Shown one piece after another: positions 13,581-49,510 of a stretch of 64,000 nucleotides of DNA. Each line of letters starts with the position of its first letter. The stretch's first letter is position 1. The stretch is from Haloplanus sp. XH21. Its GTDB lineage: Archaea > Halobacteriota > Halobacteria > Halobacteriales > Haloferacaceae. The notes beneath the pieces are model-generated. The model was given only the letters and a program-made list of their open reading frames with translations. It had not been told where the DNA came from and made no database searches. The position numbers and the translations under genes were made by a program. Location of the stretch: NCBI RefSeq assembly GCF_023276355.1, contig NZ_JALLPL010000002.1:62001-126000 (forward strand), in the 5' to 3' direction.

Positions 13581-14278
13581 GGTAGTGTTCAGATAAGGAT
13601 TGAAAGGTGAGGCGTAGCGTTTTTTGAGTGTCTATGCCAGAAAACGCTAGCTTTAACGGTTGTATCGACCGGATCGAGTTAGGCTTTGTGGAACGAGAGG
13701 CAACACCGCGGCTGTTGATGAAGCTCAGTATTCAGCTCCATCTTGCAGGAATATCACTTTCGAATACTATCTCTATTCTTGAAATGTTCGGTGTTGAGCG
13801 GGCACGATCCACCGTTCACAACTGGGTTCACAAGGCCGATCTACAGCCCGAAGAAGGCCGAAGCCCGGATCACGTTGCGGTCGATGAAACCGTGATCCGA
13901 CTCAATGACGAGCAGTATTGGCTGTACGCCGCGGTCGATCCAGAGACGAATGAATTACTCCACACAAAGCTTGAACCAACGAGAACCAACGTCATCGCTT
14001 ACTCGTTCTTCCGCGAACTGCGCGAGAAACACGACGTTGACGACGCCGTGTTTCTCGTCGATAGCGCAACACCACTGAAAGACGCTTGCCGTCGCCACGG
14101 CCTCGATTTTCAGATACGAACGCCACGGAAATCGGAACAGCGTCGAACGTGTATTCCGAGAGATAAAACGCAGAACTACCATTTTTTCGAACTGTTTCAG
14201 CAACGCCGAAGCAGAAACTGCGAACGAGTGGCTCAGATCCTTCGCCTTCGCATGGAATCAGCTAATCTGAACACTACC
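13581..14278 (+). mobile_element. IS6-type insertion sequence, copy A (transposase frameshifted)
   Basis: A 698-base element with perfect 12-base inverted termini, GGTAGTGTTCAG at 13581-13592 and CTGAACACTACC at 14267-14278. The eight bases on either side differ, so there is no target duplication. A near-identical copy in the same orientation is at 48814-49510. The right end abuts the start codon of the response regulator gene at 14281 with two bases between. Confidence 0.85.
13634..14270 (+). pseudogene. IS6-type transposase, frameshifted
   Basis: DDE transposase highly similar to the intact 211-residue copy at 48867. The N-terminal zinc/HTH region and the first two catalytic aspartates (VAVDET, FLVDSA) are in frame from ATG 13634. 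After HGLDF near 14113 an extra base moves the rest into another frame, where YERHGNRNSVERVFRE, with the catalytic Glu, and FAFAWNQLI up to the TGA at 14268 are still readable. The element can therefore only move if the intact copy acts in trans. Confidence 0.85.
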
Positions 14279-24894: not shown

Positions 24895-24922
24895 AGTAGG
24901 CCTTCACCTATTAATCTGATAA

Positions 24923-24939
24923 GGCTTTGCTGAAACCCT
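24923..24939 (+). repeat. IS-type terminus a
   Basis: GGCTTTGCTGAAACCCT, related to the consensus GGCTCTGTTGAAATCC. It faces terminus b (25513-25528) in inverted orientation 606 bases apart. Confidence 0.5.
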
Positions 24940-25025
24940 CGGAGAATTACAGGTTCGCCCGGCGTGTGGTGTGACTGAATGCAGGCTCTACGGTGGCACA
25001 CACTCCATCAACACATTGTCCTGCT

Positions 25026-25205
25026 CTGCCTCAAGATGCAGAAGAATACGACGCCCGGATGCTTCGCGAGGAGCTCAGCGACATACCTCGGATCGGTCTC
25101 GAGGATCTTCGTTCGCTTATCAAGCACCGCGAGTTCTCGTCGCTCCACAAAGCGTGGAACCCTCGGTTCGACGCTGACTACAGCCAAAGAAGATATTTGC
25201 CAGTG
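25026..25205 (+). pseudogene. IS5-type transposase remnant
   Basis: About 55 residues resemble the C-terminal third of IS5-type haloarchaeal transposases: QDAEEYDARMLREELSD then LRSLIKHREFSSLHKAWN and RFDADYSQRR. The same region in the intact transposase at 38126 reads LREGLRDLGIRPLIKHR...NARIDDNRYNQRS. Nothing remains before the catalytic DDE core, and the frame soon degenerates. Confidence 0.65.
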
Positions 25206-25224
25206 ACGAATCAAGACTTGGAAG

Positions 25225-25461
25225 ATGCCTTCTACTGATTCCGCAACTGCTCGTTCTTCCCGTAAATCCGGTCCAATTCACATAATCAGTACATCTCTTA
25301 GCCGCCAACTGCTTGGGTTCGTGCTCGCATTCATCGGGATTCAGCTCATTAGTTGGGCTGCTGCTGGAAATACCGTATTCACCTCAACAATCATCTACGC
25401 GGCGATAGGTGGGTTCATGATCTTGAATGGCCTGTTCCTTGGGGGAGTTCGCCCCCGATAA
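25225..25461 (+). CDS. Small two-helix membrane protein
   Basis: 78 residues with a polar Ser/Thr-rich N-terminus, helices at about 28-46 (LLGFVLAFIGIQLISWAA) and 51-72, and a basic end GGVRPR. No family recognised. It lies inside the 606-base segment bounded by termini a and b. Confidence 0.5.
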   Translation: MPSTDSATARSSRKSGPIHIISTSLSRQLLGFVLAFIGIQLISWAAAGNTVFTSTIIYAAIGGFMILNGLFLGGVRPR

Positions 25462-25512
25462 CGTCGCACGCGGTACATAACAAGTAGATCTATCGGTCCT
25501 GTTGGCAGTTGA

Positions 25513-25528
25513 GGATTTCAACAAAGCC
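25513..25528 (-). repeat. IS-type terminus b
   Basis: GGATTTCAACAAAGCC. Its reverse complement and the following bases match terminus e (31909) over about 36 positions with a handful of differences, so both are ends of the same element family. Confidence 0.6.
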
Positions 25529-25566
25529 AAAATAGGATTTATTGGATCGGGATAGAGAGTCCCTGC

Positions 25567-25782
25567 ATGGAAGTGCTCGGTGGCCTCAAACGCTGGAAGG
25601 AGGCCATTGCTCTCTTCTTGCTCTGCGTAGTCTTTGCTACCCTCCAGTGGGAGGTTCTTCGTGGATTCGTTATTGCAGGCCCATCCGTTCCCGATACACT
25701 GTATGATGGTTCACTCCTCGTGATGCTGCTCATCACGTTCGGGGCACTGGTCCATGAACTACGGCGAACAGCCTCGGCCTGA
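25567..25782 (+). CDS. Small membrane protein
   Basis: 71 residues, two hydrophobic segments (about 12-27 and 48-63) and a basic tail ELRRTASA. Starts 38 bases after terminus b. No family recognised. Confidence 0.5.
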   Translation: MEVLGGLKRWKEAIALFLLCVVFATLQWEVLRGFVIAGPSVPDTLYDGSLLVMLLITFGALVHELRRTASA

Positions 25783-25911
25783 CCGCTCCACCCTCCATAT
25801 CGGCCGAATCGAAGGGTCGGTTCCAACAACACAAAACAGAATCCGCCGAACGACTAGACCCACTGCTCATTGAGCAGAACCCCTATGACAGGTCACACCG
25901 TTGGCAAAGAC

Positions 25912-26297
25912 ATGTCTGACCACCTAATTGAAGATCATTTCCTCAGACAGGCAGTGCTTATCGTGGTTGTTTCCGTAGCGATGCTATATACGGAAAAACG
26001 GTCGGAGCGTTCTTTCAGACCCGCAATCTTCCCTATGGGGAGTGGCTCGGATTCGTAGTCGGGGCCACACTCATCTTCTCCTATTTGCACTACTATCCCA
26101 GCGCTATGAGGCGTTCTACGACGCTACGCAGTGACTTCTCTCGTTACTTTTTGACATTTTCCTCACCTGTCTCTCCCGGCTCCCCCGACGCACCGAGGGT
26201 GTGGAGAACACTTGCCCCAATAACCCAGGCGACCCCATTCACCACAGAAGAGAACAGGAGGAAACCGGTGAGAAGGATAGCTGGCGATGAGTCGTAA
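25912..26297 (+). pseudogene. Small membrane protein, probably frameshifted
   Basis: From ATG 25912: MSDHLIEDHFLRQAVL, IVVVSVAMLYT; then with one base missing near 25985 the next frame gives YGKTVGAFFQTRNLPYGEW and LGFVVGATLIFSYLHYYPS. This restores two helices. The reopened frame runs to 26297 but overlaps the opposite gene from 26144, so the true end is unclear. Confidence 0.4.
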
Positions 26298-26614
26298 TAT
26301 CCGATACCAATGGCGACGGTCCCCAACGATCCGAGACAGACACCTGCCGGTGGTACAAGTCCTAGCAGTACACTGGTCGGTGCACTTGTGTGCCAGTAGC
26401 TGAGCACCCCAGTGATTGCCGCCCCACCGAGGACGCTACTGTACAGAACGACGGTCGAAGCAAGAGTATGGGTCTCGGCACTAATCACGTCCCCCGTGTA
26501 GCTGATTCGGAGACCTGCGTATGCCACTGTAGTTGCCACACAAAGGGCAAATACGCCAGCTACGACGGCGGGGCGTTCATCGACCGGGGAGCAATTGGGA
26601 AGTAGCTGGGTCAT
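26144..26614 (-). CDS. Four-helix membrane protein
   Basis: 156 residues with four clear helices (about 16-38, 50-72, 82-103 and 110-140), small and Gly/Ala/Val-rich, ending in a charged tail GEPGETGEENVKK. No catalytic motif and no family recognised. Confidence 0.6.
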   Translation of the reverse strand: MTQLLPNCSPVDERPAVVAGVFALCVATTVAYAGLRISYTGDVISAETHTLASTVVLYSSVLGGAAITGVLSYWHTSAPTSVLLGLVPPAGVCLGSLGTVAIGIGYYDSSPAILLTGFLLFSSVVNGVAWVIGASVLHTLGASGEPGETGEENVKK

Positions 26615-26664
26615 AACTGGCGTATTTTTCGTTCCGATAGCATATTGTAGATGGGTAATATGTC

Positions 26665-26680
26665 CCTGTTGAAATCTTCT
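26665..26680 (+). repeat. IS-type terminus c
   Basis: CCCTGTTGAAATCTTC, matching GGCTCTGTTGAAATCCTC at most positions. It faces terminus d (27297-27312) 648 bases apart. Confidence 0.45.
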
Positions 26681-26726
26681 TGTTCAGACATATTATCGTC
26701 TAAAACAGCTGATCACTGGAGGCTGC

Positions 26727-26891
26727 TCACCGATACACCCGTCCGAGAGCAGATTGTGTACCGATTATGGCGACGGCGACAATTGCAAACCTCGACAACA
26801 CCCCCAAGTTCGTAAATGCCCGTAGGGCGAAAAGAACAGCGAGGGCTACCACGGCAGAGGCGACCAGTACCTGATTCTCGCGGGAAACCAT
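26727..26891 (-). CDS. 54-residue membrane protein
   Basis: ATG 26891, reading MVSRENQVLVASAVVALAVL then FALRAFTNLGVLSRFAIV and AVAIIGTQSALGRVYR. Two helices with short basic ends, the same architecture as its neighbours. Short, so coding status is inferred from composition and topology. Confidence 0.45.
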   Translation of the reverse strand: MVSRENQVLVASAVVALAVLFALRAFTNLGVLSRFAIVAVAIIGTQSALGRVYR

Positions 26892-27021
26892 ATCGTAACT
26901 CAAGAGAAGCGAACAAAGTACCTACCGAAAGATGGGTCCCCTGAACCTATCACTGTATTTCCTAAGGACAGAAGTCTCAGCAGTCACATGATACATGTAC
27001 CAATACGGAGTAGAAGGTGCT

Positions 27022-27222
27022 ATGTCTTCGACTGATTTCCCGTCCTCGTGGAGGGACCCGGAGTATGTCGCAACGGTTGTTGGTGTCCTTGCCACCGGCG
27101 CACTTGTATTCTACAGCGCCTTGACCCAATCTGGGCTAACTGTTGAGGAGGTAATATTCGTCGTGCTCGCTATCACTCTCCCAGCCGGTATTGCCTACGA
27201 AATCGCCCGCCGCTGGGGATAA
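27022..27222 (+). CDS. Small two-helix membrane protein
   Basis: 66 residues from ATG 27022 (MSSTDFPSSWRDPEYVATVV); ATG 26995 is an in-frame alternative. Helices at about 14-31 and 41-58 and a basic end YEIARRWG. Lies between termini c and d. Function unknown. Confidence 0.5.
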   Translation: MSSTDFPSSWRDPEYVATVVGVLATGALVFYSALTQSGLTVEEVIFVVLAITLPAGIAYEIARRWG

Positions 27223-27296
27223 CGCCCCCACAGTCTCAGGTCATACGTATTCACTCTGTACTGAGCGCACCGGAGAGAGAACCGATCACTTTCTAA

Positions 27297-27312
27297 GGAT
27301 TTCAACAGAGCC
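27297..27312 (-). repeat. IS-type terminus d
   Basis: AGGATTTCAACAGAGCC, reverse complement of the consensus GGCTCTGTTGAAATCCT. An 11-base direct repeat GTACTGAGCGC flanks it at about 27258 and 27329. Confidence 0.55.
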
Positions 27313-27394
27313 AGTAATGTCTTTTTTGTACTGAGCGCTCCTTGATTGTAGCAACCTCGTCCCTGACTACACCGAGCAGTACATAGTATCTGAG

Positions 27395-28156
27395 ATGCCC
27401 TCCCAAATGGAACTATCTGTGACGACGCTTTTCGGCGGAGCGATGCTGTTCCTCGGTGGTATAATCCTCGTTGTCAGTGGACGATACATCTGGCGGGCGA
27501 CGGCTGTCCTCCGTGCCACGGATGTAGACGCAATCGCTGAGGAAGCTCCGGGGGCACTCGTTCGTGTGTCTGGCACGGCCGAGCAAGAGACGGGGGACGT
27601 TCTCATCGCGCCGTTCAGCGGCATCGAGTGTGTCGCGCTACGGTATCAAATCGAGGAATGTCGGCTGAGTTTCCCGTACATCCTCCCTTGGTACGTGACT
27701 ATTCACGAAGCGACCAGAGCGGTCGAATTTTCCGTCCAGTCGGCGGCTGGGACAGTCCCCATAACGGAACCAATACGGACAGTCGTCTTGACGAACAAGA
27801 TCGTCGAGACGACGAGTGCTGACAGAGCACCGTCGGAACGGATCAAGCAGTTCGAACAAAAACACGAGGATATTCCCGAATCGACGGTCTGGCAGCGCCC
27901 ACCAGCGCCCCTCGAGCCACTATTCCGGATGCTCTCGCTCGGAACCCGGCGATATAGCGAACAGCGGGCAGCACGCGGGGAAGACGTGACAGTTGTCGGC
28001 CACGTCACTGATGGTGGCTCCGGAATCGATCCGGTTGTCGTTTCGGATCGGTCATCGATGGCTACCGTTTTTCGAATGGCCAAAACGTCGATTGCAGGAC
28101 TGCTCGTCGGGGTCTGCGGGCTACTGCTCGGCTATTTCCTCCTATTTTTCGGCTAG
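27395..28156 (+). CDS. GIDE-domain-like membrane protein
   Basis: A 253-residue protein with an N-terminal helix (residues 12-32), a soluble domain of about 180 residues and a C-terminal helix (231-252). The soluble part has the layout of the GIDE/E3-ligase-like domain: LVRVSGTAEQETGDVLIAPFSG, GIECVALRYQIEE, VPITEPIRTVVL and VTVVGHV. Archaeal members lack a RING finger, so no ubiquitin-ligase role is implied. Probably a membrane-anchored scaffold; function unknown. Confidence 0.6.
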   Translation: MPSQMELSVTTLFGGAMLFLGGIILVVSGRYIWRATAVLRATDVDAIAEEAPGALVRVSGTAEQETGDVLIAPFSGIECVALRYQIEECRLSFPYILPWYVTIHEATRAVEFSVQSAAGTVPITEPIRTVVLTNKIVETTSADRAPSERIKQFEQKHEDIPESTVWQRPPAPLEPLFRMLSLGTRRYSEQRAARGEDVTVVGHVTDGGSGIDPVVVSDRSSMATVFRMAKTSIAGLLVGVCGLLLGYFLLFFG

Positions 28157-28201
28157 GTTCTTCAGGGGATCGCTACATGAACTCGCACTCGTGTCAAGGG
28201 C

Positions 28202-28801
28202 TCAATTTCCTTGAATCGCATCGATAACGATTGCTCCGATCACAATTGCCCCTGTCGGGATCGAACTCGTATCGGTCAGCGTAATCTCGTACTGGTCAAA
28301 ATCAAACAGAGCGAACTCACCCTCGATAGAACCGATCGAATCGCCGTCTGCGTCGGTTATCTCGTACTTGTGAGCGATCCCTTGGCCGACCGGCAGGAAT
28401 TTTCGCCCCAAGGTGAAAAGGGCACCACGTGAGCGGATCTCGGCAAGCAGCGACCGATCATCGACATCGCGAATCCGCCACGTGTCTTGCAACAGCGAGA
28501 GGTCGTTATCGAAGATCACGAGATCCTCGTCGGTATGGCTGTCCGTGAGGAGATAGTCGCCGGCGATATCCCACGTGTCGATGGCTTTCACGCGACAGAT
28601 ATCGGTTCCGTCGGCATCGACAAAGGGAAACTCGTCTTGTTCCTCGTACATCTGGTAGGTGGTGCGAAAAATCGTGTCACCCACAACATCTCTAGCTTCG
28701 TACTCGGGTCGAAAGTTCTTATCGCGGCCCGTCTGCTCGACAGTATATTGGCTCCCGGAGAGTGCAGTCGTGGTGGGCTCATACTGTTGTGGGGCAGTCA
28801 T
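28202..28801 (-). CDS. LURP-one-related family protein
   Basis: A 199-residue protein with the beta-rich tubby-like fold of LURP-one proteins: repeated strand patterns YEARDVVGDTIFRTTYQMYEEQ, DYLLTDSHTDEDLVIF, WRIRDVDDRSLLAEI and YEITDADGDSIGSIEG, ending in a hydrophobic C-terminal helix (TGAIVIGAIVIDAIQ), which is where tubby-like proteins have their buried helix. A membrane- or phospholipid-linked role is possible. It is alone on the minus strand. Confidence 0.7.
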   Translation of the reverse strand: MTAPQQYEPTTTALSGSQYTVEQTGRDKNFRPEYEARDVVGDTIFRTTYQMYEEQDEFPFVDADGTDICRVKAIDTWDIAGDYLLTDSHTDEDLVIFDNDLSLLQDTWRIRDVDDRSLLAEIRSRGALFTLGRKFLPVGQGIAHKYEITDADGDSIGSIEGEFALFDFDQYEITLTDTSSIPTGAIVIGAIVIDAIQGN

Positions 28802-28913
28802 TGTGCGGTGTGTTCAGCCGTGGCAAAATGTATCTACCGCCTGTGGTCGCACTCGAAATCGGCTGTGATAACCGGTATCGTCGAGAATCTGTTTGCCTGG
28901 GTCCCCCCAATCG

Positions 28914-29768
28914 CTAGACTCGGTCTCCATCGCTAGCGAATTCGCGGGTTAGCGATGGGGCACCGGTCAGCTTGATTCCGATCGCTACGAGTCCGAACGC
29001 GAACACACCAGCAGCACCGACCGGGCTCGCAACCAGTTCATTGAGAATGGCATTCTCCGTGACCGCATAGGCGACGACGAGGCCAGCGGACCCGTTGAAC
29101 ACGCCGTGGAGTAGCGCCGCCGCAATCACTGACTCGGCGCGAATCACGAGATATGTGTATACGGGTGAGAAGGACAGACAGGCAATCGTCATGGCGGCAA
29201 CCCCAATCATCGGGAAAGACGGGTAGTTGTAGCCAGCGATGATAACCGGTGCGTGCCAAACACCCCAGAGGGCACCAATTGCGAACGATACCTTCCAGAA
29301 GCCCCACGGCGCCAGTTCCCAGAGCAGATAGCCGCGCCATCCGAATTCCTCCCCGAATGCGAACACTGCGTTCACTGTCGCACCCAGTCCGAGCACGAGA
29401 CCGAACGTCGCGATCACGCCGACGGGTCCCGACGGCAGTTCCAGTCCGGGTATCACATCAACTGTCGGATCAAAGCCGATGCCAGGGACAACCACCGCGA
29501 GGAGGAGCATCAATCCGACGAGCGGTAGTGCTCCCACGGCAGCCACAGCGAGCCACCGAACTCGTCCGATCTGCAGACCGACCGCCGATAGCGGAATCTC
29601 TCGACGGAGGCAGACGACAAGCCCCGCAATCATCGGAGAGAACATATACGCTGGCGCGAGTGTAATCGGGTTCACCTCGGCGATTCGAGACACGATATGC
29701 AGACCGACTGCAAAGACCACCAGAATACTGACAAAGACTGTGAGACGGCTTCTATCAGGGTCCGTCAT
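28914..29768 (-). CDS. CPBP family intramembrane metalloprotease
   Basis: A 284-residue membrane protein with eight helices. The three CPBP/Abi motifs are present: EEFGWRGYLLWEL (two Glu and Arg, about residues 139-151), a His in WGVWHAPVI, and a late His in LLHGVFNGS. CPBP (CAAX protease and bacteriocin-processing) proteins are membrane-embedded glutamyl/metal proteases; in archaea their substrates are unknown. Divergent from the gene at 29970. Confidence 0.85.
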   Translation of the reverse strand: MTDPDRSRLTVFVSILVVFAVGLHIVSRIAEVNPITLAPAYMFSPMIAGLVVCLRREIPLSAVGLQIGRVRWLAVAAVGALPLVGLMLLLAVVVPGIGFDPTVDVIPGLELPSGPVGVIATFGLVLGLGATVNAVFAFGEEFGWRGYLLWELAPWGFWKVSFAIGALWGVWHAPVIIAGYNYPSFPMIGVAAMTIACLSFSPVYTYLVIRAESVIAAALLHGVFNGSAGLVVAYAVTENAILNELVASPVGAAGVFAFGLVAIGIKLTGAPSLTREFASDGDRV

Positions 29769-29969
29769 TCAGCACCACTGTCTGAACGAGGTAGTCCCGA
29801 GATAATAAACGTATGAGTCAGTACAACCCTCCTCTCGGACGACCCGCCCAGTTTGGCTGCCACAGCGTGGACAGGAGTCAATAGAAGCGATCGTGGGACC
29901 GGCGGGGTGGTCCAATTTGAATCCCCGAGAAACGGAAGGCCTATCGGCGTTGTATCGACAGTGCGATAT

Positions 29970-30617
29970 ATGCCCTCCTCGACGACCGTTGATCGACCGT
30001 CGGAAGCAGTCGATATCGCCACCCAGTATCGACGACTTGAGCGCCCACTCAGCGGTGCTGTCGCTCTCCTCGTCGCCGCCATCGTCGCGATGTCTATCTT
30101 CTCGTTCTCCCTCGTATCAGGTGGCCTCATTGCGGTAACCGTCCTCCTCGCAGTCCGGGCGCCGCTGTTCAAAACGAGAGGGACTGCGCGCCTCATGTCT
30201 GACGCAACACTCGCCGCGGTGCGGGCCGACTTCGAGAGCACAACGCCACCGATGCTCGCGTTCCAGTGGGGCATCGCCGATACCGTTCGGTCGACACCGG
30301 AGGGCGCAGTCTACGAGATCTCGTATCTCTTCGGTCTGCGGTCGGTCGTGATGGAGCTAGAGACACGCACCGACATCGACGACACCGACGTTCGCCTCGT
30401 AGTAACTACTGGCGAGAATCCATGGGGAACGTACGATGTGAATATCACTGCTAACGGCGACGAGACGGCCATCGATATCGAGTGGGCGTCAGATCGTCGA
30501 TTCGGCCTCAACCGACTGCCACAGTGGCTGCTCGCCGAACGGTACCGTGCCGTCGCGCTCGCCGCCCAGGGATATACGGTCGTTGATCGCGACGCCACCC
30601 TCGCACTCGTTGCATGA
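29970..30617 (+). CDS. Hypothetical protein with two membrane helices
   Basis: 215 residues from ATG 29970 (MPSSTTVDRPSEAVDIATQY); an upstream extension to 29853 is not membrane-like and is discounted. Two helices at about 29-65 are followed by a 140-residue soluble domain rich in beta strands (GLRSVVMELETRTDIDDTDVRLVV). The last codons overlap the next gene by four bases (ATGA), so it is coupled to the DUF6498 gene. No family recognised. Confidence 0.6.
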   Translation: MPSSTTVDRPSEAVDIATQYRRLERPLSGAVALLVAAIVAMSIFSFSLVSGGLIAVTVLLAVRAPLFKTRGTARLMSDATLAAVRADFESTTPPMLAFQWGIADTVRSTPEGAVYEISYLFGLRSVVMELETRTDIDDTDVRLVVTTGENPWGTYDVNITANGDETAIDIEWASDRRFGLNRLPQWLLAERYRAVALAAQGYTVVDRDATLALVA

Positions 30618-31807
30618 CTGACCGTCGATTATCGCTTCTCACCGTTCTCGTCACCAACGCCATCCCGCTCGTTGGTGTCGGGTTTCTCGGATGGTCGATC
30701 GCCGCACTCGTCGTTGTCTACTGGGTGGAGCTCGGCGTCGGCCTCGGATTCGCCGCTCTCAGAGCGACCTTCGCACAGCGGCCGCCGGAACACGACGCCG
30801 ACCTCCTGCTTCTCGGCGCGTTCCGACACAAACGTGGGCGTGTGTCGATACCCTGGATCGAGCTTGATGTCCAGGTCGCGAACATACCGATCCTCCTCGT
30901 CCTGTTCCCGGTGTTCGGTACTATCTGGTTCGTCACCGGTGGGATCGCACTTGGCGGTACCAACGTGGCAATAGCAGGCGATCCATTCGAGACGGAGACC
31001 ATGTCGACGGTAGCGCTCGGAATCATGGGAATCGTCGTCGGCCGGGGCGTCAAGACGGTGTCGGAGTATTTCCTCGACGGACAGTACGAATCCGTCTCCG
31101 TTCAGGGAGCGCTCAAGACGGCGATTTGGCCGGTCATGGTCGTTGGTCTCGCGCTCGCCGTGAGTGGGGCGGCGGCGACCTCGGGTGCCCCCGCGACCGT
31201 CATTCTCGTTGCGCTGGTGGCTACCAAGTCGCTGTTCGATCTCGCCGACATCTATCGAGATCGGCTCGTCGCGTTCGACGAGCGCTCGGCGCTTGACTTC
31301 GGCTGGGCGAGTGATCCCGACGACTGGTCGTCGATCGACACGGAACTCCAGGACACCGTCGATATCGTTCGCCCACGGGGTGCAGCTGTCCTCGTCGACG
31401 GTGTTATCCGAGGACTGCGAACGGAAGCGGTTGGGCTCGCAGCGTTCATCGGTGGCCTCTCACTCCTGTTCGGGACTCTCGGATCAAATCCTGAACTCGT
31501 TCTGTTCGGGGGCGGTGTCGGACTCGTGCTTCTCGTATTCGTCGGTCTCTGTGGGGTCGTCGACGGTCTCGTGAGATACTCGACGATGGAGTACCGATTC
31601 GGACGGGATGTGGTGGGACACGACCGACTGCTCGGGACGCCACAGTGGCGGCTTCCTCGGTGGAAATTGGAGCGGTGTGACCCGCATCGAACGTTCGCCG
31701 ACCGTGTGTTCGGGACGTGGACGCTCACTCTCGATCACGACGGGCGGACTGTCCGTATTCCGCACGTTTCGGATGCATTCGTCGCTGAGCTCTGCACTGG
31801 TGACTGA
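30614..31807 (+). CDS. DUF6498-like membrane protein
   Basis: A 397-residue protein with about eight helices. The N-terminal pattern NAIPLVGVGFLGWS...YWVELGVG is typical of DUF6498 (helix pair with a YWxE motif). Two cytosolic loops and a hydrophilic tail follow. The function of the family is unknown. Translationally coupled to the preceding gene. Confidence 0.65.
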   Translation: MTDRRLSLLTVLVTNAIPLVGVGFLGWSIAALVVVYWVELGVGLGFAALRATFAQRPPEHDADLLLLGAFRHKRGRVSIPWIELDVQVANIPILLVLFPVFGTIWFVTGGIALGGTNVAIAGDPFETETMSTVALGIMGIVVGRGVKTVSEYFLDGQYESVSVQGALKTAIWPVMVVGLALAVSGAAATSGAPATVILVALVATKSLFDLADIYRDRLVAFDERSALDFGWASDPDDWSSIDTELQDTVDIVRPRGAAVLVDGVIRGLRTEAVGLAAFIGGLSLLFGTLGSNPELVLFGGGVGLVLLVFVGLCGVVDGLVRYSTMEYRFGRDVVGHDRLLGTPQWRLPRWKLERCDPHRTFADRVFGTWTLTLDHDGRTVRIPHVSDAFVAELCTGD

Positions 31808-31908
31808 TATTGGAGACACAGAGTGCCCCACACTCGGTAGCTATCGTTTCTCTGCGAAGGCAGGGGGTAGCGATCGTCGACGAGACGTTGCTCAAATTCA
31901 CTCAGGAG

Positions 31909-31926
31909 GCTCTGTTGAAATCCTCA
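31909..31926 (+). repeat. IS-type terminus e
   Basis: GGCTCTGTTGAAATCCTC, the best match to the consensus, with the similarity to terminus b continuing for about 18 more bases. Faces terminus f (32557-32570), 662 bases apart. Confidence 0.6.
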
Positions 31927-32083
31927 ACCGCTAACAGTTCTGGGAGATGCTATAGAGAGAACTACTGCACACTAACTACAGAGGGTGTATGCAGCAGGGG
32001 CTATTCGAGTCAAATAGGTTTCAAGATACAATAACCAATAAGCACGTCGGAGAAGATTAGCACCGGAACGACAACACCGCCGG

Positions 32084-32386
32084 TTATCCTCCGGTAATAA
32101 ATCCGAGATCGAGGAAGGGTGCAACGACGACGCACAGCAATACGAGGATCGCCGCGAAACGGAGTATGCCTACCGCCTGTAGCTGGGTCTCTGGAAGGGA
32201 CTCGGCGCTTCCGGACAACGCAGTTCCGACGGCCATAAAGAGTAACCACCGGCTTTCGCCAGCATCGCCGACGCTCCAGGCATACACGAACATGCACAAG
32301 AAGGTAAACGACAGGCCGAACTGAAAAAGTGCGATGCGTCGGCCTTGAGGCTCGTTGAACAGCACCTCGCTAATATAGGGGACCAT
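32084..32386 (-). CDS. Three-helix membrane protein
   Basis: 100 residues from ATG 32386 (MVPYISEVLFNEPQGRRIAL); the frame is open upstream but lacks membrane character. Helices at about 20-36, 45-62 and 74-92. Lies inside the segment bounded by termini e and f. No family recognised. Confidence 0.5.
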   Translation of the reverse strand: MVPYISEVLFNEPQGRRIALFQFGLSFTFLCMFVYAWSVGDAGESRWLLFMAVGTALSGSAESLPETQLQAVGILRFAAILVLLCVVVAPFLDLGFITGG

Positions 32387-32556
32387 AAGCGACGCACTCC
32401 TGCTTAAGATACAAAACAATGCCTCAGTGCGTCCCAGTAGAGCGTCCTCTCCCGTGCTACGCGATTCCTCTGCAGGAGACGGTAGGTGATACACTGTGAG
32501 ACCGCACGCCGACCTAACGCCTGTTTCAGCGGGGAGGATGTCACCAGGGCAATAGA

Positions 32557-32570
32557 ACTTCAACAGAGCC
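32557..32570 (-). repeat. IS-type terminus f
   Basis: ACTTCAACAGAGCC, reverse complement GGCTCTGTTGAAGT. A few bases before it (32535-32549) is GGGGAGGATGTCACC, resembling the right end of the TnpB element. Confidence 0.5.
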
Positions 32571-32605
32571 ACTCAGGAGGATGTCAACTGGGCGTGGTCG
32601 TCAAA

Positions 32606-37723: not shown

Positions 37724-38104
37724 GTGGCTCTCGCTCGTCGACGTGTCCTCCAAGCAGTCGGGACGACGGCACTCACCATACCCGCCGGCTGTTCGTCGCC
37801 CAGGTTCCTCGGCTCAGACGATACTGCTTCTGAGTACACCCTTGACATCGAATCTGTCGACGCCTCTCCGGTCGCCCACGCGCTCTATGAACCCCGAGCG
37901 GGGACGCGCCCAGTCGTGGGGACGGACATGGTGTATCTCGGGTGTAGCGGGCGCGACCATGGAACGCTCGTCGCGCTTCGCCAGACAGACGGGACCGACC
38001 GCTGGTCGTTTACGGACCAGAACAGCACCGTGTACGAACCGGCGTTAGTGGGCGATATGGTGTACGCCGGGTCGAACGATAATCGGATTTACGGGCTGTG
38101 TTGA
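37724..38104 (+). pseudogene. PQQ-like beta-propeller protein, truncated by IS5-type element
   Basis: Starts GTG 37724 with a Tat/lipoprotein-like leader (LARRRVLQAVGTTALTIPAGC, Cys at about 22), followed by one and a half propeller blades (VVGTDMVYLGCSGRDHGTLV, ALVGDMVYAGSNDNRIYGL). After NRIYGL the sequence passes into the IS end and a stop at 38102. Full-length homologues continue for several more blades. Confidence 0.75.
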
Positions 38105-39034
38105 ATCGCTGTAAGGCGTAGAGATTCACTGTTTGACGAAGCGCTTGATGTTATAGACGACACACATCAGCGCGATTTCGCGGAACTCACGAAACCATGA
38201 GCGCGCTCGCACGGCGAAGCCGAGCGAGCGCTTCACAGCCGAGTTCACAGTTTCAGTCATAGAGCGCTGATTGTAGCGGTTATCGTCGATTCTGGCGTTG
38301 TGTGCGTGGTCGTACGCTGCGAAGATGCGGTGTTTGATCAGCGGTCTGATCCCGAGGTCGCGTAATCCTTCACGAAGCGATTGCTTGTCATAGCCTTTAT
38401 CGGCCGCAAGAGACCGCAGATCGCCCGCATTTCGGCGGGCGATCTGCTCGGCAAGGTCTGCGTCGCTCCCTTTCCGATTTGTAGAGCAGTGGACGTCAAG
38501 GACGGCTTGAGACGCTGTATCGACGAGTTTCGTGACTTTGAGCTTCTGAACGCGGTAGCTGATTCGCTGGCAGTAGTGGCGGCTGGCTGGTGAGCGGTCG
38601 TAGAACGTGGCGTCGATCGCGGCGTGTTCAGAGAGATCGTGCAGCTGCGCCGACTGGCGCAGCAGCACTCGACAGACGCTCATACTGATCCGGTCGAACG
38701 CCTTACACAACGTGGACGGCGCGGGGAGATCGGCCGCGTTGAGGCCGATCTCCCCGATTATTTGTGGCATCTCTTTGAGCAGGTCGATCGTCATGCGGTA
38801 CGACGAATCGAGGTAAATCCGCAGACAGTGAAGGGAAACGAGTGCATAGTCGGCGAATCCGCCGCCACCTTCTGGGGCGGCGGATTCGCCTCCATCGCCA
38901 GTAACTCTTTGAGCAACCGGTACAACCTCCCCGATGAAGCGGGAGATTTGCGTCATGGTCAACGGAACTCTCCCGCTTCAACTCCTTTGATTTAGCGGCC
39001 TACCTCGCTGCCGTATGGCGATTCAACACAGCCC
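38093..39034. mobile_element. IS5-type insertion sequence
   Basis: About 942 bases between inverted ends GGGCTGTGTTGAATCGC (38093) and GCGATTCAACACAGCCC (39018-39034). It carries one intact transposase on the minus strand. The flanks are different truncated genes (PQQ protein left, receiver-PAS gene right) with no visible target duplication, so a deletion or recombination has joined unrelated DNA at this copy. Confidence 0.8.
38126..38962 (-). CDS. IS5-type transposase
   Basis: 278 residues, DDE type. Catalytic aspartates in AIDATFYDRS and KLVDTAS/LAADKGYD, catalytic Glu in SMTETVNSAVKR, with the IS5 YREK-like R/K pattern around NARIDDNRYNQRS. The N-terminus contains a helical DNA-binding region and a Gly-rich GESAAPEGGGGF stretch. 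Full length with no stops, so the element may be mobile. Confidence 0.85.
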   Translation of the reverse strand: MTMTQISRFIGEVVPVAQRVTGDGGESAAPEGGGGFADYALVSLHCLRIYLDSSYRMTIDLLKEMPQIIGEIGLNAADLPAPSTLCKAFDRISMSVCRVLLRQSAQLHDLSEHAAIDATFYDRSPASRHYCQRISYRVQKLKVTKLVDTASQAVLDVHCSTNRKGSDADLAEQIARRNAGDLRSLAADKGYDKQSLREGLRDLGIRPLIKHRIFAAYDHAHNARIDDNRYNQRSMTETVNSAVKRSLGFAVRARSWFREFREIALMCVVYNIKRFVKQ

Positions 39035-48813: not shown

Positions 48814-49510
48814 GGCGGTGTTCAGATAAGGATGAAGGATGAGGCGGTGCGATTTTTGAGTGGTCAATGCTCGAAACCGACCGCCTCATCGGTGATAGCG
48901 ACAGCTTTGAGTTAGGATTTGTGGAACGAGAGGCGACACCCGAGCCGGCGATGAAGCTTGGTATTCGACTCCATTTGGCTGGTCTATCACTTTTGAATAC
49001 CGTCTCAGTTCTTGATAGTTTGGGTGTCAAACGCTGTCGATCCACCGTTCACAATTGGGTGCAGAAGGCCGATTTACAGCCCACAGATGGTACCACCCCG
49101 GATCACGTTGCGGTCGACGAGACCGTGATCCAACTCAATGACGAACGATATTGGCTGTACGCTGCAGTCGATTCCGAGACGAACCGCTTGCTACACGTTA
49201 AGCTTTCTCCGACGAGAAATCAAGCGATTACCGAGATGTTCCTTTCCGAACTCCGCGAGAAACATCTCGTCGATGAGGCGCTCTTCCTCGTCGATTCTGC
49301 ACCGTGGCTGCAAGCGGCACTCCATCGACACGGCCTCGATTACAGATGCGAAAAACATGGTAATCGGAACAGTGTCGAACGTGTTTTCCGAGAACTAAAA
49401 CGTCGAACAAACCAATTCTCAAACTGTTTCAGCCACGCCGAAGCAGACACCGTCGAAAATTGGCTTCGAGCGTTTGCCTTCGCATGGAATCAGCTAATCT
49501 GAACACTACC
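48814..49510 (+). mobile_element. IS6-type insertion sequence, copy B (intact)
   Basis: 697 bases. Left end GGCGGTGTTCAG (48814-48825), right end CTGAACACTACC (49499-49510); the left end differs from copy A at two positions. Same orientation as copy A 35 kb away. Flanks are a truncated plasmid gene and the inside of a DUF7405 gene, again without target duplication. Confidence 0.85.
48867..49502 (+). CDS. IS6-type transposase (intact)
   Basis: 211 residues. DDE residues in VAVDETVIQLNDE, FLVDSAPWLQ and SVERVFRELKRRT, with the LRAFAFAWNQLI terminus that ends within the right inverted repeat. N-terminal zinc/HTH segment (CRSTVHNWVQKADLQP). Probably active and able to mobilise copy A. Confidence 0.88.
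   Translation: MLETDRLIGDSDSFELGFVEREATPEPAMKLGIRLHLAGLSLLNTVSVLDSLGVKRCRSTVHNWVQKADLQPTDGTTPDHVAVDETVIQLNDERYWLYAAVDSETNRLLHVKLSPTRNQAITEMFLSELREKHLVDEALFLVDSAPWLQAALHRHGLDYRCEKHGNRNSVERVFRELKRRTNQFSNCFSHAEADTVENWLRAFAFAWNQLI

What the first reader, a model, noticed from the sequence alone, without database searches (positions are those of the whole stretch)
24923..32570. Three 606-662-base segments bounded by inverted IS-type ends and holding only small membrane genes
Termini with consensus GGCTCTGTTGAAATCC occur six times: 24923(+)/25513(-), 26665(+)/27297(-), 31909(+)/32557(-). Each pair is inverted and the segment sizes are nearly equal. None has an intact transposase; inside are 54-100 residue membrane proteins, and the first also has an IS5-type transposase scrap. 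They may be non-autonomous elements with passenger genes, mobilised by an IS elsewhere.
Basis: partly seen in the sequence, partly recalled or inferred. Interest (0 to 1): 0.7.

Follow-up and report, generated by a model that had tools for sequence, protein, structure and literature searches.

The report
Jumping one-gene cassettes in haloarchaea
The three segments are members of a widespread family of jumping elements in salt-loving archaea in which the same IS5-type ends carry a different small passenger gene in almost every copy, with or without the enzyme that moves them.

Summary
The six ends are real (6 matches, 0.53 expected) and bound segments of 606, 651 and 663 bp. The third has a perfect 8-bp target duplication, the second 6/8, the first none. 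The genus is probably Haloplanus. The parent is not IS6 but an IS5-family element of ISHla2 type.

Across archaea, nearly all haloarchaea, I assembled 113 distinct elements with these ends and 7-8/8 target duplications: 54 with a full 273-aa transposase, 1 partial, 58 without. Every transposase copy that could be delimited carries extra DNA behind the transposase (44 of 44). Passenger ORFs: 103, in 95 clusters. Elements share the left ~880 nt and often the last ~65 nt, while the middle is unrelated, with sharp borders. Transposase-free elements pair two different inner ends (21 A1+B1, no A1+A1 or B1+B1).

In the window, segment 1 is a decayed transposase-carrying copy; segments 2 and 3 are transposase-free passenger carriers. 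Transposition itself, and how passengers are exchanged, remain untested.

The parts
24923..25528 (.). Segment 1 (E1): decayed transposase-carrying element, 606 bp
   Evidence: Inverted ends; no target duplication; transposase-type left end 22.3 bits; three blocks of transposase DNA with deletions between
24923..24938 (+). Left end of E1, 3 mismatches to consensus
24993..25238 (+). Transposase fragments (ORF of 81 aa holding the C-terminal IS5 fragment)
   Evidence: tblastn with the 273-aa transposase: residues 36-54 and 202-230; ORF
25225..25461 (+). Passenger ORF of E1, 78 aa, hydrophobic
   Evidence: no Pfam or NCBIfam match
25513..25528 (-). Right end of E1, 1 mismatch
   Evidence: inner part not classed
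26662..27312 (.). Segment 2 (E2): transposase-free passenger carrier, 651 bp, target duplication 6/8
   Evidence: left inner end is class B1 (35.9 bits), right is weak A1 (7.1 bits, E 0.03)
26727..26903 (-). Passenger ORF, 58 aa, hydrophobic
   Evidence: homologues in 18 of 167 genomes of the family, at several loci 68-71 bp from an end; similar 54-aa ORF in element L134
26995..27222 (+). Second passenger ORF, 75 aa, hydrophobic
   Evidence: no match above cut-off
31900..31907 (+). Left copy of the E3 target duplication ACTCAGGA
31908..32570 (.). Segment 3 (E3): transposase-free passenger carrier, 663 bp, target duplication 8/8
   Evidence: unoccupied paralogous site in the same genome; right end matches the right terminus of transposase copies (22.2 bits)
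32084..32572 (-). Passenger ORF of E3, 162 aa as listed; conserved part starts near residue 45, true start uncertain
   Evidence: matches in 81 of 167 genomes of the family; element L304 shares 407 nt at 88.7% at another site with another duplication
32571..32578 (+). Right copy of the E3 target duplication ACTCAGGA

Best explanation
The three segments belong to one family of haloarchaeal transposable elements moved by an IS5-family (ISHla2-type) transposase that acts on 16-bp terminal repeats and makes 8-bp target duplications. In this family nearly every element carries its own passenger gene. The transposase-carrying form is [left end and transposase, about 880 nt] + [unrelated passenger] + [right end, about 65 nt]. 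The transposase-free form has a short left module in place of the transposase module and, by inference, moves when a transposase is supplied from elsewhere. Segments 2 and 3 are transposase-free passenger carriers. Segment 1 is a transposase-carrying copy whose transposase has been deleted down to fragments. Shown: ends, target duplications, unoccupied sites, modular architecture, passenger diversity. Inferred: movement in trans, and passenger change mainly when the transposase pairs a left module with a different nearby right end, carrying off the DNA between. A weaker inference is that the inner ends also serve as inward promoters.
For: Ends above chance. Perfect duplication and unoccupied paralogous site for E3; element absent at E1's left edge in a same-genus genome. 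30 perfect duplications among 61 end pairs in 87 loci, 0.53 expected. 113 distinct elements with 7-8/8 duplications, 54 with full transposase, 1 partial, 58 without. Transposase is IS5 family NF033579, 219.7 bits against cut-off 140. In 44 of 44 delimited transposase copies 319-1934 bp follow the transposase. Shared DNA stops 10-20 nt after the stop codon; 7 of 1275 pairs align more than 80 nt beyond it. Passenger interior is uncorrelated with transposase relatedness (r -0.01, p 0.63), while left end (0.65) and right end (0.32) are correlated. Related transposase copies whose right end changed together with the passenger, for example L220 and L214 with 96% and 54%. Transposase-free elements pair A1 with B1, 15 of 15 classed type-1 pairs outside the seeds, and B1 is also the right end of 25 of 54 transposase copies. 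E3's passenger sits in another species at another site with another duplication (L304).
Against: No transposition was observed. This genome has no transposase with these ends in the loci examined, so present mobility is doubtful. E1 has no duplication and E2 only 6/8. E3's left inner end fits no class, E2's right end only weakly. 47 of 91 transposase loci could not be delimited. Some close pairs keep the right end while the passenger differs (L223/L257), which end re-pairing alone does not explain. 4 of 28 classed type-2 pairs... are A2+A2 in part: 8 A2+B2, 4 A2+A2, 1 A2+B1 outside the seeds, so the pairing rule is looser there.
Confidence: 0.84

Rival explanations
1. Passengers are exchanged between fixed borders: a recombination step replaces the middle of an element while both its ends stay. 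The short motif at the inner border of A1 ends and behind the transposase would mark that border.
For: L223 and L257 are 97.4% identical over nt 1-886 and 98.5% over the last 67 nt with unrelated passengers of different length between. L215 and L217 keep right ends 82-85% like that of L214 while passengers differ. The motif is within 2 mismatches in 22 of 24 A1 ends at nt 45-47 and right after the stop codon in most of 16 of 52 transposase copies, 0.4% in shuffles.
Against: In other close pairs the right end changes too (L220 and L214). 36 of 52 transposase copies lack the motif at 2 mismatches. A test for inverted repeats bordering the passenger gave no clear excess (mean 8.23 against 7.75-7.98 in controls). 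No recombinase was sought.
Confidence: 0.25
2. The segments are ordinary decayed IS copies or MITEs and the small genes inside are incidental.
For: E1 does hold transposase debris. 125-bp MITEs with the same 16-bp ends exist in other genomes. The window is rich in small membrane-like ORFs outside the segments too.
Against: Passenger homologues of E2 and E3 recur beside or inside the same ends elsewhere. Intact transposase copies also carry passengers, 44 of 44. Passengers include recognisable enzymes and regulators.
Confidence: 0.08
3. The ends belong to an IS6-family element, suggested by the likeness of GGCTCTGTTGAA to IS6 ends as I recall them.
For: Ten PF13610 matches in this genome; 8-bp duplications also fit IS6 (recalled).
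Against: None of the ten IS6-type loci, with 1.5 kb on each side, has a pair of these ends; the transposase found between such ends elsewhere is IS5.
Confidence: 0.02
4. Independent single end insertions happen to flank host genes.
For: Unpaired ends exist: 190 ends gave 61 pairs, and 3 ends in this genome are unpaired within 1.5 kb.
Against: Pairs share 8-bp duplications far above chance, and inner ends come as A+B pairs.
Confidence: 0.02

Closest known systems
ISHla2-type elements of the IS5 family (haloarchaea)
   Same: Transposase family, 16-bp ends; the ISHla2-labelled copy itself has about 320 bp and an annotated 57-aa hypothetical protein behind its transposase
   Different: The window segments lack a transposase; passengers differ from copy to copy, which I found described nowhere in the papers searched
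Mobile insertion cassettes (MIC), recalled from bacteria; the term appears in papers listed
   Same: IS-type ends, passenger gene, no transposase, target duplication
   Different: Here very numerous and diverse, with two distinct inner ends per element and a modular relation to transposase-carrying copies that themselves carry passengers
Transporter IS (tIS), recalled class of insertion sequences with passengers
   Same: Transposase plus a passenger gene between the ends
   Different: Here a passenger is the rule and almost every copy has a different one
MITEs of haloarchaea (for example in Haloquadratum, PMC3119063, passages read)
   Same: Transposase-free, ends and target duplication shared with an IS
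   Different: [quoted passage not shown] the elements here are coding and each differs
Integron gene cassettes (recalled)
   Same: Like it only in outcome: exchangeable single genes between constant flanks
   Different: Moved by a DDE transposase with target duplications at scattered sites; no integrase or attC site was sought

Membership tests
IS5 family, ISHla2 type (parent elements) | DDE transposase of the IS5 family | tested here: met
   NF033579 at 209-220 bits, cut-off 140, for L056, L071, L075; DDE_Tnp_1 above cut-off
IS5 family, ISHla2 type (parent elements) | Inverted ends with 8-bp target duplication | tested here: met
   44 delimited copies all with 8/8 duplications
IS5 family, ISHla2 type (window segments themselves) | Intact transposase | tested here: not met
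   Only fragments in E1, no significant match in E2 and E3
Mobile insertion cassette (E2, E3) | IS-related inverted ends around passenger gene, no transposase | tested here: met
Mobile insertion cassette (E2, E3) | Target duplication | tested here: met
   E3 8/8; E2 only 6/8
Mobile insertion cassette (E2, E3) | Mobilised in trans by the related IS | not testable with these tools
   Inferred from shared ends and from the same passenger at different sites
Transporter IS (transposase-carrying relatives) | Transposase and passenger inside one pair of ends | tested here: met
   44 of 44 delimited copies have 319-1934 bp behind the transposase, with an ORF
MITE | Short and non-coding | tested here: not met
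   E1-E3 hold ORFs with homologues elsewhere for E2 and E3
IS6 family | IS6 transposase between these ends | tested here: not met
   No end pair around any of ten IS6-type loci of this genome
Integron cassette | Tyrosine integrase and attC sites | not tested
   No search was made; considered only for likeness of outcome

The most novel reading that the evidence does not exclude
Haloarchaea possess a general gene-cassette system built on one IS5-type transposase: standard left and right modules, each with an inward promoter, between which single genes are exchanged so readily that even closely related copies almost never share a passenger. It would be an archaeal counterpart, in effect, of integron cassettes, spreading small membrane, stress, regulatory and toxin-antitoxin-like genes through the class.
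Probability: 0.35. Interest if true: 0.87.

Novelty: new variant of a known kind. Interest (0 to 1): 0.72.

Why it matters
Passenger-carrying insertion sequences are usually treated as exceptions (recalled). Here a whole, very common family carries passengers as a rule, its ends occur in 25 of 28 genera of the taxonomic family searched, and the same ends also carry genes without a transposase. That gives a concrete, testable route for the spread of small accessory genes, many of unknown function, in haloarchaea. It also suggests that many orphan small membrane genes in these genomes sit inside mobile elements. The asymmetric end pair and the sharp passenger borders pose a clear question: how does a transposon change its cargo so often?

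Tried and rejected
IS6 as parent was tested and rejected. Bare relatives were checked: the own genome's IS5 copies with nearest ends (940 bp, GGCTGTGTTGAATCGCC-type ends, one with flanks that repeat 8 bp) have no room for a passenger, so the passenger habit is not general for IS5 here. An idea that the passenger is bordered by its own inverted repeats failed its test. The transposase had no match in the phage collection. L057, an element with extra DNA on one side, was examined as possible end-skipping; its inner end is too degenerate to tell. My first choice of passenger ORFs masked too much beside the transposase and was redone; only one search counts are used. The defence-library scan of passengers gave matches in one or two members each and supports no defence claim. 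Promoter activity of the ends is suggested only by an A+T-rich block near nt 25-33 in most end classes (weakest in B2) and by the transposase start at nt 53.

Dropped rows and limits: end pairs with target similarity of 6/8 or less were left out of the set of 113, so E1 and E2 are not in it; E3 (L004) is. 47 of 91 transposase loci were not delimited. End classes were trained on six sequences each from the same data, so counts without seed elements are given too. The transposase-directed searches inflate the share of transposase copies: in the pattern-scan loci it is 12 with, 1 partial, 29 without. Passenger ORFs were picked by a heuristic score (length, acidity, TM-like stretch), so single picks may be wrong. 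ISfinder, most subscription journals and preprints could not be searched.
Full report
Observation. The consensus end occurs six times in the window, as three inverted pairs, against 0.53 expected. The segments are 24923-25528 (E1, 606 bp), 26662-27312 (E2, 651 bp) and 31908-32570 (E3, 663 bp). E3 is flanked by a perfect 8-bp duplication, E2 by a 6/8 one, E1 by none. The window is part of a 305-kb contig of a 2.94-Mb genome.

Insertion. The own genome has a paralogous stretch, 86% identical to window 29923-31907, whose match stops exactly at E3's left edge. There the target ACTCAGGA occurs once, and the DNA that follows resembles E3's right flank only over a short stretch. For E1, a same-genus genome is 83% identical up to base 24922 and then continues without an element; E1's right flank has no counterpart there, so E1's right side was probably rearranged.

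Parent. Ten IS6-type loci in this genome lack pairs of these ends. Between pairs of these ends in other genomes lies a 273-aa transposase of the IS5 family (NF033579, 219.7 bits, cut-off 140; DDE_Tnp_1). A plasmid record of Halorubrum lacusprofundi labels a relative (80% identity) as ISHla2 family. The transposase is found at E up to 1e-60 in 205 of 392 genomes of the order. The own genome has three matches in that search, the best at E 2.6e-69, far weaker than the family proper; the seven PF01609 loci of the own genome show no pair of these ends. A fourth element in this genome, C1:1874781-1875973, has an 8/8 duplication and carries zinc-ribbon protein genes. Three further ends are unpaired within 1.5 kb.

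Family survey. The end, with up to 1 mismatch, occurs in 151 of 170 genomes of the taxonomic family (25 of 28 genera); the reversed control pattern has zero in every row shown. Two pattern scans gave 7 viral and 119 genome stretches; in 87 of these 126 loci (all 7 viral and the 80 genome loci that the scan listed), 61 end pairs include 30 perfect 8-bp duplications, against 0.53 expected from shuffled partners. Over loci L001-L332, keeping only duplications of 7 or 8 of 8, there are 113 distinct elements, 97 of them perfect: 54 with full transposase, 1 partial, 58 without; the last are 124-2171 bp long.

Architecture. Of 91 transposase loci, 44 could be delimited. In all 44 the transposase starts 52 nt inside the left end and 319-1934 bp follow it. 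Among 52 distinct copies the shared DNA runs from nt 1 to about 10-20 nt past the stop codon in most pairs and then ends; 7 of the 1275 pairs whose main match spans the transposase reach more than 80 nt beyond the stop. L223 and L257 are 97.4% identical over 1-886, unrelated in the middle, and 98.5% identical over the last 67 nt. Mantel tests: transposase against left end r 0.65, against right end 0.32 (both p 0.0005), against passenger interior -0.01 (p 0.63). Among close relatives the right end is sometimes kept and sometimes replaced together with the passenger. I favour re-pairing of the left module with a new right end as the commoner route, with replacement between fixed borders as a real rival; neither is proven.

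Transposase-free elements. Their inner ends fall into classes. In all, 21 are A1+B1, 15 A2+B2, 4 A2+A2, 1 A2+B1 and 17 have at least one unclassed end; none is A1+A1 or B1+B1. Without the elements that supplied seeds the numbers are 15, 8, 4, 1 and 17. B1 is also the right end of 25 of 54 transposase copies, A2 of 4, and 25 are unclassed. The inner border of A1 carries a motif that recurs behind the transposase stop in 16 of 52 copies, which ties the two forms together. Six MITEs of 124-125 bp in the set share the 16-bp ends but not these inner ends.

Passengers. 103 best ORFs form 95 clusters, median 143 aa, 54 with a TM-like stretch; 3 elements of 200 bp or more have no ORF of 45 aa. Orientation is mixed: 33 opposite to and 22 along the transposase, 19 A to B and 15 B to A in classed transposase-free elements. 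Pfam gives 66 families at E up to 1e-4, among them BrkB, CAAX protease, GNAT acetyltransferases, methyltransferases, thioredoxin, a PLP enzyme, luciferase-like monooxygenase, SnoaL and a histidine kinase. L067 and L072 look to me like HicAB- and VapBC-type pairs from their ORFs; that is my reading, not a family match.

The window segments in this light. E2 has a B1 end on the left (35.9 bits) and a weak A1 end on the right (7.1 bits). Its 58-aa gene recurs in 18 of 167 family genomes, and among the 22 loci examined six (L333, which is the window's own, L339, L343, L344, L345, L354) have an end about 68-71 bp from the gene. E3's right end matches the right terminus of transposase copies (22.2 bits). 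Its protein has matches in 81 of 167 family genomes. Of 30 loci examined, the own included, 4 have the gene inside an end pair with a 6/8 or better duplication (L303 own, L304, L309, L323); most have no end close by, so the gene family also exists outside elements. E1 starts with the transposase-type end and holds three blocks of transposase DNA with deletions between.

Literature. Ten searches of the held library showed no description of this family. The nearest are a single haloarchaeal transposon passenger (PMC10544981, passages) and Haloquadratum MITEs, one type of which holds an ORF (PMC3119063, passages). A 2024 review of prokaryotic MITEs does not use the words passenger or cargo (PMC10969869, passages). 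Whether ISfinder already records the passenger habit is unknown to me. I therefore call it a new variant of a known kind (mobile insertion cassette and transporter IS) rather than categorically new.

Noticed in passing
window 29923-31907: A second copy of these genes, 86% identical in DNA, lies in the same contig at C2:47786-49763; it served as the unoccupied site for E3.
   Followed up: partly
window about 38094-39033: A 940-bp IS5 copy with related but different ends and no passenger room; a second copy on C1 has flanks that repeat 8 bp.
   Followed up: partly
window about 13874-14089 and 49107-49427: IS6-type transposase matches, unrelated to the segments.
   Followed up: no
L163:4541-4934: A contig labelled Thermoplasmata MAG holds an element with type-2 ends and an 8/8 duplication; mis-binning of a haloarchaeal contig is possible.
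   Followed up: no
L171:6221-6368 and L187:4045-4270: Two contigs labelled as methanogen MAGs (Methanomicrobiales, Methanoregula) hold short elements with the same 16-bp end and 8/8 duplications but other inner ends: the terminal motif may reach beyond haloarchaea.
   Followed up: no
L081:9928-10843: A viral-collection contig carries one of these elements with an 8/8 duplication; its ORF reads like an HNH protein.
   Followed up: no
L312:1028-1484, L316:1844-2301, L317:1877-2347: Related small elements (457-471 bp, 72-78% alike, 7/8 duplications) sit directly beside homologues of the E3 gene in three genomes, outside the gene itself.
   Followed up: no
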